From contig NZ_KQ483358.1 of assembly GCF_001432305.1 (NCBI RefSeq), positions 2,603,822 through 2,667,821 on the forward strand: a stretch of DNA of 64,000 nt, given 5' to 3'. The DNA is from Curvibacter sp. PAE-UM. Lineage in GTDB: Bacteria; Pseudomonadota; Gammaproteobacteria; Burkholderiales; Burkholderiaceae_C. A model generated the notes under the pieces. It was given only the letters and a program-made list of their open reading frames with translations, ran no database searches and was not told the origin of the DNA. Position 1 is the stretch's first letter; each line of letters opens with the position of its first letter. The position numbers were made by a program, and so were the translations under genes. Of this stretch, positions 10,365-13,751 are shown one piece after another.

Positions 10365-10847
10365 ATGATCTACAAGATGTTGGGAACACTGGCCAAGGCC
10401 TGCGCCATCCTGGCCGGTGTGCTGCTGACGGTCATCACGCTGATGACCTGCCTCAGCGTGATGGGGCGCAACACCACCGGCACCACGCTGGTCGGTGATT
10501 TCGAGCTCACGGGCGTGGCCGCCGGTGCGGCGATCGCCCTCTTCCTGCCCTGGTGCCAGCTGCGCCGCGGCAACATCATCGTGGACTTCTTCACAGCCCG
10601 CGCCAGCGAGCGCACCACCGCCGCGCTGGACCGCATCGGCGCCTTCGTGCTGGGCCTGTGCATGGCCCTGCTGGCCTGGCGCACCGTGCTCGGCGGCCTG
10701 AGCGCCTGGAGCACGCAGTCGGCCACCATGATGCTGGGTTTTCCCGAGTGGATCGTCTACACGCTGATGGTGCCGCCCCTGATCCTCACGGCCCTCATCG
10801 GCCTGAGCCAGGGCCTGCTGGGCTTTGACCCGGAGGTCCAGGCATGA
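10365..10847 (+). CDS. dctQ: TRAP transporter small permease subunit (DctQ)
   Basis: 160 residues with four predicted membrane helices: about 9-32, 45-64, 85-107 and 124-147. It carries the DctQ signature around LPWCQLRRGNIIVDFF. DctQ joins the large permease to form a sodium-driven importer fed by a periplasmic binding protein. It begins 29 bp after the fumarylpyruvate hydrolase stop, which ties the transporter to gentisate breakdown. DctQ is normally adjacent to or overlapping DctM; here a 157-bp repeat separates them. Confidence 0.9.
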   Translation: MIYKMLGTLAKACAILAGVLLTVITLMTCLSVMGRNTTGTTLVGDFELTGVAAGAAIALFLPWCQLRRGNIIVDFFTARASERTTAALDRIGAFVLGLCMALLAWRTVLGGLSAWSTQSATMMLGFPEWIVYTLMVPPLILTALIGLSQGLLGFDPEVQA

Positions 10848-11004: not shown

Positions 11005-12324
11005 ATGACCCCCGTGACCCTGACCCTGATGATCTTCGGCATCATGCTGCTGCTGATGGCGGTACGCATCCCGATTGCGATCGCCATGTTCGTGGCCGGG
11101 GCCATCGGCTACGTGACCCAGGCCGGCTGGCTGCCGCTGTCCAATTTCCTCAATACCCAGGCCTTCGCGCGTTTTGCCAGCTACGACCTGTCGGTGATCC
11201 CGCTGTTCATCCTGATGGGGCATTTCGCCACCCAGGGCGGCATTTCCAAGGCCCTGTTCGGTTTTGCCAGCGCCGTGATGTCGCGCCTCAAGGGCGGCCT
11301 GGCCATGGCCGCCGTCCTGGCCAGCGCGGCCTTCGGTGCCATCTGCGGCTCCTCGGTGGCCACGGCAGCCACCATCACCTCGGTGGCCCTGCCCGAGCTC
11401 AAGCGCCACGGCTATTCCGGCCGCCTGTCCACCGGCACCCTGGCCGCCGGCGGCACGCTGGGCATCCTGATCCCGCCCTCCGTCCCGCTGGTGATCTACG
11501 CCATCCTGACCGAGCAGAACATCGCCAAGCTCTTTGCCGCGGCCATGGTGCCGGGCCTCATCGCCATGACCGGCTACATGATCGCCATCGCGGTCTACGT
11601 GCGCCTGGTGCCGGGCCAGGCACCGGAAAAGGACGTGGTCACTGAAAAGATCACGCTGCAGTCGCTCAAGGGGGTCATCCCCATCGCGCTGATCTTCCTG
11701 ATCGTCTTCGGCGGCATCTATGGCGGCATCTTCACGCCCACCGAGGGTGCGGCGGTCGGCGCAGCGGCCACCTTCGTGATGGCCCTGGCCTTGCGCGAGC
11801 TGACGCTCAAGAAGCTGGCGCACTGCTTCTACGCCACGGCGGAGAGCTCGGCCATGATCTTCATGATCTTCATCGGCGCCGACCTGATGAACTCTGCGCT
11901 CACGCTCACGCAGGTACCGGCCCAGCTGGCCAGCGTGGTCGGCGGCTGGGGCCTGCCGCCGCTGATGGTGGTGTCCGCCATCCTGCTGCTCTACGTGGTG
12001 CTGGGCGCAGTCATGGACGAACTGTCCATGATCCTGCTGACCATCCCGATCTTCTTCCCCATGGTCATGGGCCTGGATTTCGGCATGCCCCCTGAATCGG
12101 TGGCCATCTGGTTCGGCATCATGGTGCTGATGACGGTGGGCTTCGGCCTGCTGGCGCCACCCGTGGGCCTGAACGTCTACGTGGTCAACGGCATGGCCAA
12201 GGACGTGCCCATCAGCGAGAGCTACCGCGGCGTGATGCCCTTCCTCATCAGCGACGTGCTGCGCACGCTGCTGCTGCTGTTCTTCCCGGCCGTTTCCCTG
12301 TGGCTGGTGAAGTACGTGGGCTAG
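11005..12324 (+). CDS. dctM: TRAP transporter large permease (DctM)
   Basis: 439 residues, about 12 membrane segments, the usual DctM length. Family signatures seen are ICGSSVATAATITSVALPE, GGTLGILIPPSVPLVIY and FTPTEGAAVGA. DctM is the translocating subunit. The ATG at 11005 is chosen because hydrophobic sequence starts there; reading further upstream runs into the repeat and gives a basic, non-homologous extension of 60 residues. The likely cargo is an aromatic acid or related organic acid, inferred from the gentisate genes upstream. Confidence 0.92.
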   Translation: MTPVTLTLMIFGIMLLLMAVRIPIAIAMFVAGAIGYVTQAGWLPLSNFLNTQAFARFASYDLSVIPLFILMGHFATQGGISKALFGFASAVMSRLKGGLAMAAVLASAAFGAICGSSVATAATITSVALPELKRHGYSGRLSTGTLAAGGTLGILIPPSVPLVIYAILTEQNIAKLFAAAMVPGLIAMTGYMIAIAVYVRLVPGQAPEKDVVTEKITLQSLKGVIPIALIFLIVFGGIYGGIFTPTEGAAVGAAATFVMALALRELTLKKLAHCFYATAESSAMIFMIFIGADLMNSALTLTQVPAQLASVVGGWGLPPLMVVSAILLLYVVLGAVMDELSMILLTIPIFFPMVMGLDFGMPPESVAIWFGIMVLMTVGFGLLAPPVGLNVYVVNGMAKDVPISESYRGVMPFLISDVLRTLLLLFFPAVSLWLVKYVG

Positions 12325-12357
12325 CCGCTGCGAACGCACGCCAGCGGCATAACAGCC

Positions 12358-12630
12358 AGGGACCCTCTGCAGAACTCCCGTCATGCGCGTTCGAGTCCAA
12401 AACGGGATGATTTGGCCGCCAACACCACGCAGCGTGTGCTCCAGCACACGCAAGGGGTTTGGTGGGCAAAGGGCCCGTTTTGGTTCGAACCCGAAGGGGC
12501 GTGGTTTTGCGGGCGATCCGTAGCGTTGCAAAACCAGGCAAGCCGTTCAGGCTTGCCTTGGGTTTTGCGCCTTGCGGCTCATCCCGCAAAATCCACGCCG
12601 CGCGCAACGCGAGTTCTGCAGAGGGTCCCT
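12358..12630. mobile_element. MITE-like element, 273 bp, perfect 20-bp terminal inverted repeats
   Basis: The left end AGGGACCCTCTGCAGAACTC (12358-12377) is the exact reverse complement of the right end (12611-12630). Inside are two large imperfect hairpins. The left one has arms GTTCGAGTCCAAAACGGG (about 12389-12406) and CCCGTTTTGGTTCGAAC (about 12474-12490). The right one has arms starting GGCGTGGTTTTGCGGG (about 12498) and ending CCCGCAAAATCCACGCC (about 12599), with apex GGCAAGCC-GTTCA-GGCTTGCC at 12537-12557. A smaller hairpin GCGTGTGC-TCCA-GCACACGC lies at 12433-12452. No transposase is encoded and no clear target duplication is visible. It occupies most of the 386-bp gap between dctM and dctP. 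Confidence 0.85.
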
Positions 12631-12710
12631 AGATTTGAGGGAAAGCCCCAGCACGGGCCAATGTGAATTTCGGCTAAGGTGCAGTCTGAACCCTCAAGAG
12701 GAGACAGACC

Positions 12711-13751
12711 ATGATCCAGCGCCGTACCCTGCTCAAATCCACCGCTGCAGCTGCAGCACTCGGTGTCCCGACCCTGGGCCTGGCCCAGCAGAGCGTGACG
12801 CTCAAGTTCCACACCTTCATGTCCCCCATGTCGGCCGTCTGGAACACCATGCACAAGCCGTGGATGGACAAGGTCGAGAAGGAATCGGGTGGCCGCATCA
12901 AGTTCGAGGCCTATCCGGCCATGCAGCTGGGCGGCACGCCGGTGCAGCTCTACGACCAAGCCCGCGACGGCGTGGTCGACGTGGTCTGGACACTGCCGGG
13001 CAACACCGCCGGGCGCTTCCCGCGCATCGAGGTGTTCGAGCTGCCCTTCATGCTCAACAACGCCGAGGCCACCTCCAAGGCCTATTGGGAATACGTGCAG
13101 ACCGTGGCGGTCGACGAATTCAAGGACACACACCCGATCGCCCTGCACGTGCACGGCCCCGGCATGTTCCATACCAAGGCCAAGCAGATCAAGACCCCGG
13201 ACGACCTCAAGGGCCTGAAGATGCGCGGCCCGACCCGCCAGGTCACCAAGCTGCTGCAGGCCGTGGGCGCCACGCCGGTAGGCATGCCGCTGCCGCAGAT
13301 CCCGGACGCGCTGTCCAAGGGCACGATCGATGGCTGCGTGATCCCCTGGGAAGTGGTGCCGGCCGTCAAGGTGCACGAGCTCACCAAGTTCCACACCGAG
13401 TTCCCGGCCGGCCACACGGGCCTGTACACCACGACCTTCGTCATGACCATGAACAAGGCCAAGTACGAGTCGCTGGCACCGGACCTCAAGAAGGTCATCG
13501 ACAACAACTCCGGCCTGGCCACCTCGGGCTGGCTGGGCAAGCAGCAGCAGGCCAGCGACATCCCGGGCCGCAAGCCGGCAGTCGAGCGCGGCAACACCAT
13601 CTACACGCTGAGCAATGCCGAGGCGCAGGAGTTTGTCAAGCGCTCCAGCGAAGTGGACAACGAGTGGGTGGCCGACATGAACAAGCGCGGCTTCGACGGC
13701 AAGAAACTGCTGCAAAGCGCCAAGGACCTGATCGCCAAACACGGCAAATAG
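12711..13751 (+). CDS. dctP: TRAP transporter periplasmic solute-binding protein (DctP)
   Basis: 346 residues. The signal peptide has an RRTLLK twin-arginine-like motif, then an Ala-rich core ending in LGLAQQ. The mature DctP domain contains VTLKFHTFMSPMS, FELPFML and the ligand-site region LKGLKMRGPTRQVTKLLQAVG with the conserved arginine that binds carboxylates. It delivers substrate to DctQM. It is on the same strand as dctQM but separated from them by the MITE-like element; AAGAGGAGA precedes the ATG. A terminator follows, so this ends the gentisate/TRAP transcription unit if readthrough across the elements occurs. Confidence 0.92.
   Translation: MIQRRTLLKSTAAAAALGVPTLGLAQQSVTLKFHTFMSPMSAVWNTMHKPWMDKVEKESGGRIKFEAYPAMQLGGTPVQLYDQARDGVVDVVWTLPGNTAGRFPRIEVFELPFMLNNAEATSKAYWEYVQTVAVDEFKDTHPIALHVHGPGMFHTKAKQIKTPDDLKGLKMRGPTRQVTKLLQAVGATPVGMPLPQIPDALSKGTIDGCVIPWEVVPAVKVHELTKFHTEFPAGHTGLYTTTFVMTMNKAKYESLAPDLKKVIDNNSGLATSGWLGKQQQASDIPGRKPAVERGNTIYTLSNAEAQEFVKRSSEVDNEWVADMNKRGFDGKKLLQSAKDLIAKHGK

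What the first reader, a model, noticed from the sequence alone, without database searches (positions are those of the whole stretch)
12358..12630. 273-bp MITE-like element with perfect 20-bp ends inside a TRAP operon
The ends AGGGACCCTCTGCAGAACTC are exact inverted repeats. The interior folds into two long imperfect hairpins and one short perfect one, so nearly the whole element can pair. It has no transposase and lies between dctM and dctP, which are normally cotranscribed. A strongly folded RNA there could lower dctP expression relative to, or separate it from, the permease, or protect either mRNA end. Target duplications are not evident.
Basis: seen in the sequence. Interest (0 to 1): 0.7.

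Follow-up and report, generated by a model that had tools for sequence, protein, structure and literature searches.

The report
Folded mobile DNA with swappable ends
A 269-base, protein-free mobile DNA element has inserted between two transporter genes; it belongs to a family in this order of bacteria whose folded core is conserved while its two matching ends differ from copy to copy, which is unusual for such elements.

Summary
Window 12358-12630 has exact 20-bp inverted ends, folds far better than shuffles (z -13.7), and is repeated: 9 A-type full-length copies in the host genome, 14 elements counting relatives with other ends. The dctM-dctP site is empty in 11 of 11 testable congeners. It is a non-autonomous IS5-type MITE, ends GGACCC...GGGTCC, flanks CCAG/CTAG. 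IS5 elements with such ends exist in the genus; none was found in this genome. The family anatomy is unusual. An ~82-bp hairpin module of the core matches in 78 of 300 genomes of the order, own genome included; in 16 of 18 loci with a second hit this is an inverted copy. Several end types bound it; one equals an 849-bp IS5-family element's end. In 26 A copies the core is conserved (0.89), the ends are not (0.65), yet both ends of a copy match (16.65 of 18 against 11.62 permuted, 0 of 10000), and end subtype is scattered on the core tree. Best reading: a cross-mobilised MITE whose ends change as a pair, probably by arm-to-arm DNA copying. No regulatory role at dctM-dctP is shown.

The parts
10365..10847 (+). 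dctQ, small TRAP permease subunit (context)
   Evidence: Pfam DctQ E 4.2e-17
11008..12324 (+). dctM, large TRAP permease subunit (context; start codon inferred)
   Evidence: Pfam DctM E 6.9e-87
12356..12359 (+). left flank CCAG, imperfect 4-bp target duplication
   Evidence: flanks of 26 A copies favour CTAG/YTAR; relatives G005 and G016 have similar sequence up to CCAG
12360..12628 (+). 269-bp IS5-type MITE (A subfamily)
   Evidence: 9 A-type full-length copies in own genome; empty site in 11 of 11 testable relatives
12360..12377 (+). left terminal inverted repeat GGACCCTCTGCAGAACTC
12389..12490 (+). hairpin 1; inferred inverted homologue of hairpin 2
   Evidence: fold; in relatives model R1, built on hairpin 2, hits a second copy on the other strand (16 of 18 loci with a second hit); in the window itself R1 does not detect hairpin 1, so homology here rests on alignment to those relatives
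12491..12498 (+). linker between the two hairpins
12499..12598 (+). hairpin 2; holds the order-wide conserved ~82-bp module (R1 match 12507-12589, 84.7 bits)
12611..12628 (-). right terminal inverted repeat, exact complement of the left
12629..12632 (+). right flank CTAG
12635..12700 (+). native dctM-dctP leader (TTGAGGGAAAGCCCC ... GGCTAAGGT), untouched by the insertion
   Evidence: present in 7 of 7 relatives printed
12711..13751 (+). dctP, TRAP solute-binding protein (context)
   Evidence: Pfam DctP E 8e-44

Best explanation
A non-autonomous miniature transposon (MITE) of IS5 type that inserted between dctM and dctP after this species split from its sequenced congeners. Shown: it is multicopy, its site is empty in relatives, it has IS5-type ends and YTAR-type flanks, it encodes no recognised protein, and part of its core is a hairpin module found across the order with other end types. 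Inferred: an IS5-family transposase acting in trans, not found in this genome, cut at the ends and moved it. Inferred, less sure: the two hairpins of the core are inverted copies of one module, and the two ends change together because the arms of this near-palindrome copy each other at the DNA level (template switching on the folded strand) or are exchanged as a pair, so the conserved core can meet new transposases. At this locus it is most likely a passenger in the dctM-dctP mRNA that adds a strong hairpin; any effect on dctP is unproven.
For: Copies: 9 A-type full-length in the own genome, matches in 13 of 25 congeners, B-type relatives. Empty site in 11 of 11 relatives with both flanks on one contig. 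IS5 elements with the same type of end: G002 1160 bp with GGAAGGTCTGAACAAC at both ends and flanks CTAG/CTAA, G012 with CTAG/CTAG, G008 with CTAA/CTAA; the two G002 proteins match NCBIfam IS5_4 at 357 and 355 bits. The ends of some B copies (e.g. L032) equal over 17 bp those of an 849-bp IS5-family element on Xanthomonas plasmid AP019683 with TTA/TTA flanks; 8 of 21 B copies have exact 3-bp duplications, excess over shuffled pairing p 0.004. Paired ends: with a plain GG boundary 16.65 of 18 matches within a copy against 11.62 when permuted, 0 of 10000 as high; core-anchored 17.7 of 20 against 12.5, 0 of 10000. Ends decoupled from the core: r 0.02; 9 changes of end subtype against 8.4 for shuffled labels, one-clade trees rejected for all three subtypes. 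Covariation of the module stem, 0 of 500 shuffles as high. End-only derivatives exist.
Against: No transposition was observed. The own genome gave no match to PF01609, PF05598 or the G002 transposase, and the three congeners with near-full-length relatives of that transposase (G002, G008, G012) show no A-type copy. Exact 4-bp duplications occur in only 6 of 26 A copies, matching no better than shuffled pairing (p 0.36); the favoured CTAG target is itself a palindrome, which weakens the test. Order-wide, end class mostly follows the core tree (6 changes, minimum 5), so wholesale class switches are few; exchange is seen within class A. One copy, L024, has poorly matched ends (5 of 18). In 2 of 18 loci with a second module hit (L251, L261) it is on the same strand, and R1 does not detect hairpin 1 in the window. 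Core conservation with varied ends could also arise from gene conversion of cores.
Confidence: 0.85

Rival explanations
1. A structured RNA is the selected product: the dumbbell is transcribed, and both the stems and the conserved bulges are kept for an RNA function (processing, stability or protein binding), with mobility as the means of spread.
For: Two-sided base-pair changes are frequent in the module stem (11 of 16 pairs, 0 of 500 shuffles); bases around offset bulges are nearly invariant in the 17 modules chosen for the model; B copies lean to G-U over A-C on the + structure (55:23), not far from the RNase P control (44:12); whole elements are slightly more stable as + strand RNA (20 of 26 A, 14 of 21 B).
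Against: A copies show no G-U excess (30:28) on the + structure; the order-wide single module is more stable on the other strand in most cases (+ better in 13 of 81); no fixed orientation to genes (++ 5, -- 8, convergent 8, divergent 7 among the 28 of 36 with both sides called, heuristic ORFs); no Rfam match in an element.
Confidence: 0.2
2. A selected cis-regulatory insertion at this locus: the hairpin cuts or insulates the dctM-dctP mRNA so that dctP is expressed differently from the permease.
For: It lies between co-directional dctM and dctP, 33 bp after one gene and 80 bp before the next. ERIC and Correia/NEMIS elements are reported to change mRNA fate (passages of PMC2229807).
Against: The site is empty in 11 of 11 testable relatives; copies elsewhere have no preferred orientation; the native leader of dctP is intact; no sigma-70-like promoter and no clear excess of terminator-like sites.
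Confidence: 0.1
3. Ectopic gene conversion keeps cores alike among copies while the ends, near the edge of homology, drift; the ends do not move as units.
For: Core is 0.89 identical and ends 0.65; support inside the A tree is low (3 starred of 23 inner branches).
Against: Own-genome cores do not cluster together but mix with those of other genomes, and drift alone would not keep the left and right end of a copy matched.
Confidence: 0.15

Closest known systems
MITEs of bacteria (Correia/NEMIS, ERIC and others, passages of PMC2229807)
   Same: Short, no recognised gene, inverted ends, target preference, strongly folded if transcribed.
   Different: There the ends define the family (general knowledge, recalled). 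Here the core is the conserved part, ends vary between copies yet match within a copy, and the same core module carries ends of different types.
CIR elements of Caulobacter and Brucella (PMC2229807, passages)
   Same: Two hairpin arms joined by a linker.
   Different: The review's table marks CIRs as without terminal inverted repeats; here a matched terminal stem closes the dumbbell, and the two arms look like inverted homologues.
REPINs / BIMEs (PMC3116915 and PMC2817692, search listings and starts of abstracts only)
   Same: Palindromic units in alternating or inverted orientation.
IS5-family insertion sequences with the same type of end (G002, G008, G012; 849-bp element on AP019683)
   Same: End sequence type and flank type.
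   Different: They carry a transposase; G002, G008 and G012 gave no match to the A element, though G008 has one module hit with the B query.
Stem-loop sequence families of Bordetella and other genomes (PMC2267715, passages; its family tables and supplements were not seen)
   Same: Repeated folded families were reported from bordetellae, which belong to the same order (recalled).
   Different: Whether this family is among them could not be checked.

Membership tests
MITE (non-autonomous DDE-type element) | inverted terminal repeats | tested here: met
   exact 20 bp; outer 18 bp match 16.65 of 18 on average in 26 A copies, lowest 5
MITE (non-autonomous DDE-type element) | multiple dispersed copies and empty sites | tested here: met
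MITE (non-autonomous DDE-type element) | no transposase gene inside | tested here: met
   269 bp; three overlapping mechanical ORFs have no Pfam match
MITE (non-autonomous DDE-type element) | target-site duplication | tested here: inconclusive
   CCAG/CTAG here, 3 of 4; A copies 6 of 26 exact but the target is palindromic; B copies 8 of 21 exact TTA, p 0.004
IS5-mobilised MITE | same ends as an IS5-family element | tested here: met
   similar, not identical, for the window's own subtype: GGACCCTCTGCAGAAC against GGAACCTCTGCACTAC / GGAAGGTCTGCAAAAC in G002; near-identical for the AGGTCTGAACAA subtype
IS5-mobilised MITE | active transposase in the same genome | tested here: not met
   no PF05598, PF01609 or G002-transposase match in G000; this speaks to a present helper, not to the kind of element
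IS5-mobilised MITE | moved by that transposase | not testable with these tools
   needs a transposition assay
REPIN / RAYT-mobilised repeat | a RAYT (Y1) transposase in the genome | not tested
Known structured RNA family (Rfam 15) | score over a curated threshold | tested here: not met
   no hit at E <= 1 in 12200-12800; in 10 other loci, at gathering scores, only a tRNA and an nhaA-I riboswitch, neither inside an element

The most novel reading that the evidence does not exclude
The ~82-bp bulged hairpin module is itself the heritable unit: a structured DNA (or RNA) module that is passed between matched end-pairs of different IS5-family types, so that one core outlives many transposases. Both ends are replaced in one step by copying or grafting at the base of the folded dumbbell, for which end-only hairpins (41 and 60 bp) are the natural donors or left-overs.
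Probability: 0.3. Interest if true: 0.8.

Novelty: new variant of a known kind. Interest (0 to 1): 0.58.

Why it matters
MITE families are usually defined by their ends (general knowledge). Here the ends are the changeable part and the folded core is the constant; its hairpin module matched in 43 of 135 sampled genera of the order (no sample outside the order was searched). If ends really change as matched pairs, that offers a simple answer to how a gene-free element survives the loss of its transposase: it re-equips itself for another. The own genome, with at least 14 elements and no IS5-type transposase found, is a concrete case to test. It also gives a covariance model for a repeat that the Rfam scans did not recognise.

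Tried and rejected
Rfam scans gave no family for the element. Plasmid search with the whole element gave no match. A G-U against A-C strand test was first run on pairs shared by both strand folds; the RNase P control showed that this choice hides the signal even in a true RNA (13:8), so only the strand-specific counts are used, and they do not agree between subfamilies. An early end comparison mis-registered copy L005 by one base; one search shifted boundaries to favour left-right agreement within a copy, a bias, so repeats it with a plain boundary and is the one relied on. The idea that the varied ends are pre-existing host hairpins into which a core jumped is rejected for this copy, because the 11 empty sites show no GGACCCTCTGCA hairpin; it was not tested for copies with private ends such as L004, whose end occurs nowhere else in its genome at up to 3 mismatches. 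A tree of 60 cores showed that end class mostly follows the core, which limits the claim of end switching to within class A. Literature searches listed no paper that I recognised as describing this family; listings and starts of abstracts only, plus passages of PMC2267715, PMC4666352, PMC2229807 and PMC4168063. Subscription papers and supplements are not covered.

Rows dropped or partial: A copies L005, L024, L119 and B copies L033, L069 were left out of the pair counts; L033 and L069 also from flank counts; 8 of 26 A copies with unique ends were unlabelled, whose subtypes I named after seeing the tree; 12 of 41 loci showed no clear outer inverted repeat; gene context was scored for 36 of 49 copies with heuristic ORF calls, of which 15 overlapped a called ORF and 1 lay inside one. 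The alignment was fitted to its own model, which leans towards the structure. One search failed on a script error and was rerun.

Full report
What was checked. The 20-bp ends at 12358-12377 and 12611-12630 are exact inverted repeats and the 273 bases fold to -185.7 kcal/mol, z -13.7 against dinucleotide shuffles. Pfam confirms dctQ, dctM and dctP on the + strand around it; three mechanical ORFs that overlap it have no Pfam match. The mobile unit is better bounded at 12360-12628, with flanks CCAG and CTAG.

It is mobile DNA. The own genome (3.63 Mb, 4 contigs, rated 100% complete) holds nine A-type full-length copies at 86-100% identity, a related element L010 with other ends, four B-type elements (L011 and three more), and a 41-bp end-only palindrome. 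The hairpin model found 15 modules in it, the number scored being capped at 15. Of the 149 genomes, own genome included, 25 have a match at E <= 0.001, the weakest of them possibly chance; in the genus it is 13 of 25 relatives. Hits named by organism include Hylemonella, Curvibacter and Polaromonas. At dctM-dctP, 11 of 11 congeners with both flanks on one contig lack it (G001, G005, G010, G013, G014, G016, G017, G018, G020, G023, G025); G006 has the flanks on two contigs and G012 gave only one adjoining flank, so they do not count, and the other 12 congeners showed no clear orthologous flank. G005 and G016 have similar sequence up to CCAG, then differ.

Who could move it. Ends start GG and flanks favour CTAG/YTAR, as in the IS5 subgroup (subgroup rule recalled, not from a call). 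In the genus, IS5 elements of 1156-1211 bp have such ends: G002 (two), G008, G012; both G002 transposases score 355-357 bits against NF033581, cut-off 140, and those of G008 and G012 are 66% and 61% identical to one of them. The own genome has no match to PF05598, PF01609 or the G002 transposase, and G002, G008 and G012 have no A-type copy. So the helper is inferred to be lost or to act elsewhere.

The core. Hairpin 1 is 12389-12490, hairpin 2 is 12499-12598. Model R1, made from hairpin 2 of 17 elements, gave second hits in 18 of 70 loci searched, about 108 bp away; 16 of the 18 are on the opposite strand (L177 and L198 being one place), 2 (L251, L261) on the same strand. In the window R1 sees hairpin 2 alone, so that the two hairpins here are inverted homologues is inferred from relatives. 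Bases around two offset bulges are nearly invariant in the 17 rows. The 16-pair stem is paired in 95.3% of cells over 81 distinct sequences; 165 cells show two-sided changes against 39.8 for shuffles, 0 of 500 as high. R1 matches 78 of 300 genomes of the order at E <= 1e-4, own genome included, 43 of 135 genera; genomes outside the order were not searched. Of 41 loci examined, 29 had an outer inverted repeat: 8 enclose 159-162 bp, 13 enclose 266-275 bp, 8 other lengths; that these are monomers and dimers of the module is an inference. Central expansions to 340-409 bp carry extra hairpins.

Several end types, one core. Besides A ends, the module is bounded by GAGCCTGTTCACG (B), GGGCTCGTTAATG (D), GAACTTCCCCACCCC (L010), GGCAACGCTGAAC (G049) and others. 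The end of some B copies (L032) is identical over 17 bp to that of an 849-bp IS5-family element on plasmid AP019683 with TTA flanks; the own-genome copy L011 differs from it at 2 of 17. B copies show an excess of 3-bp duplications (45 of 63 bases, p 0.004). On a tree of 60 cores the six end classes need 6 changes, one more than the minimum, so class switches are few and deep; several long branches make it rough.

Ends differ as pairs within class A. Among 26 copies mean column identity is 0.89 in the core and about 0.65 in the ends. With a plain boundary the two ends of a copy match at 16.65 of 18 positions against 11.62 when ends are permuted among copies, 0 of 10000 as high; one copy (L024) has only 5 of 18, the next lowest 15. 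Core and end identity are uncorrelated (r 0.02, over 325 pairs); copies L004 and L005 of the own genome have cores 98.6% identical and ends 64% identical. Three end subtypes need 9 changes on the core tree against 8.4 for shuffled labels, and trees holding each together are rejected (p 2e-88, 0.0007, 0.018). Support in that tree is low, and the subtypes were named after the first tree had been seen.

RNA or DNA. On the + structure G-U to A-C departures are 30:28 in A, 55:23 in B and 44:12 in the RNase P control. Whole elements fold slightly better as + strand, the single module better as - strand (+ better in 13 of 81). There is no consistent strand, so this does not settle it. In the outer helix of the module, cells changed on both sides (147) far outnumber one-sided ones (10; summed), which fits arm-to-arm DNA copying, though selection for pairing is not excluded.

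Verdict. An ordinary kind of object (an IS5-type MITE) at this locus, with an unusual family anatomy: conserved hairpin module, interchangeable matched ends. The regulatory reading for dctP is unproven and not favoured by the comparative data.

Noticed in passing
own genome C1:235957-236233 (L007/L091): One copy of the element lies about 55 bp downstream of the RNase P RNA gene (C1:236289-236618), same strand.
   Followed up: no
own genome C1:1648210-1648250 (L013) and G010:C20:68767-68826 (L088): End-only palindromes of 41 and 60 bp with A-type ends and no core; they look like elements that lost the whole dumbbell.
   Followed up: partly
window 12635-12700: Leader of dctP with TTGAGGGAAAGCCCC and GGCTAAGGT is similar in 7 of 7 relatives printed; may be a native regulatory or processing site.
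   Followed up: partly
L179 (G003) and L181 (G008): The hairpin module sits inside 385-398 bp inverted structures ending CGCACCGGGCCTGCC, unlike the IS5-type ends.
   Followed up: no
L167:631-691: nhaA-I riboswitch match (40.8 bits) near a B-type copy in G042.
   Followed up: no
   Followed up: no
L251 and L261: Second module hit on the same strand rather than inverted.
   Followed up: no
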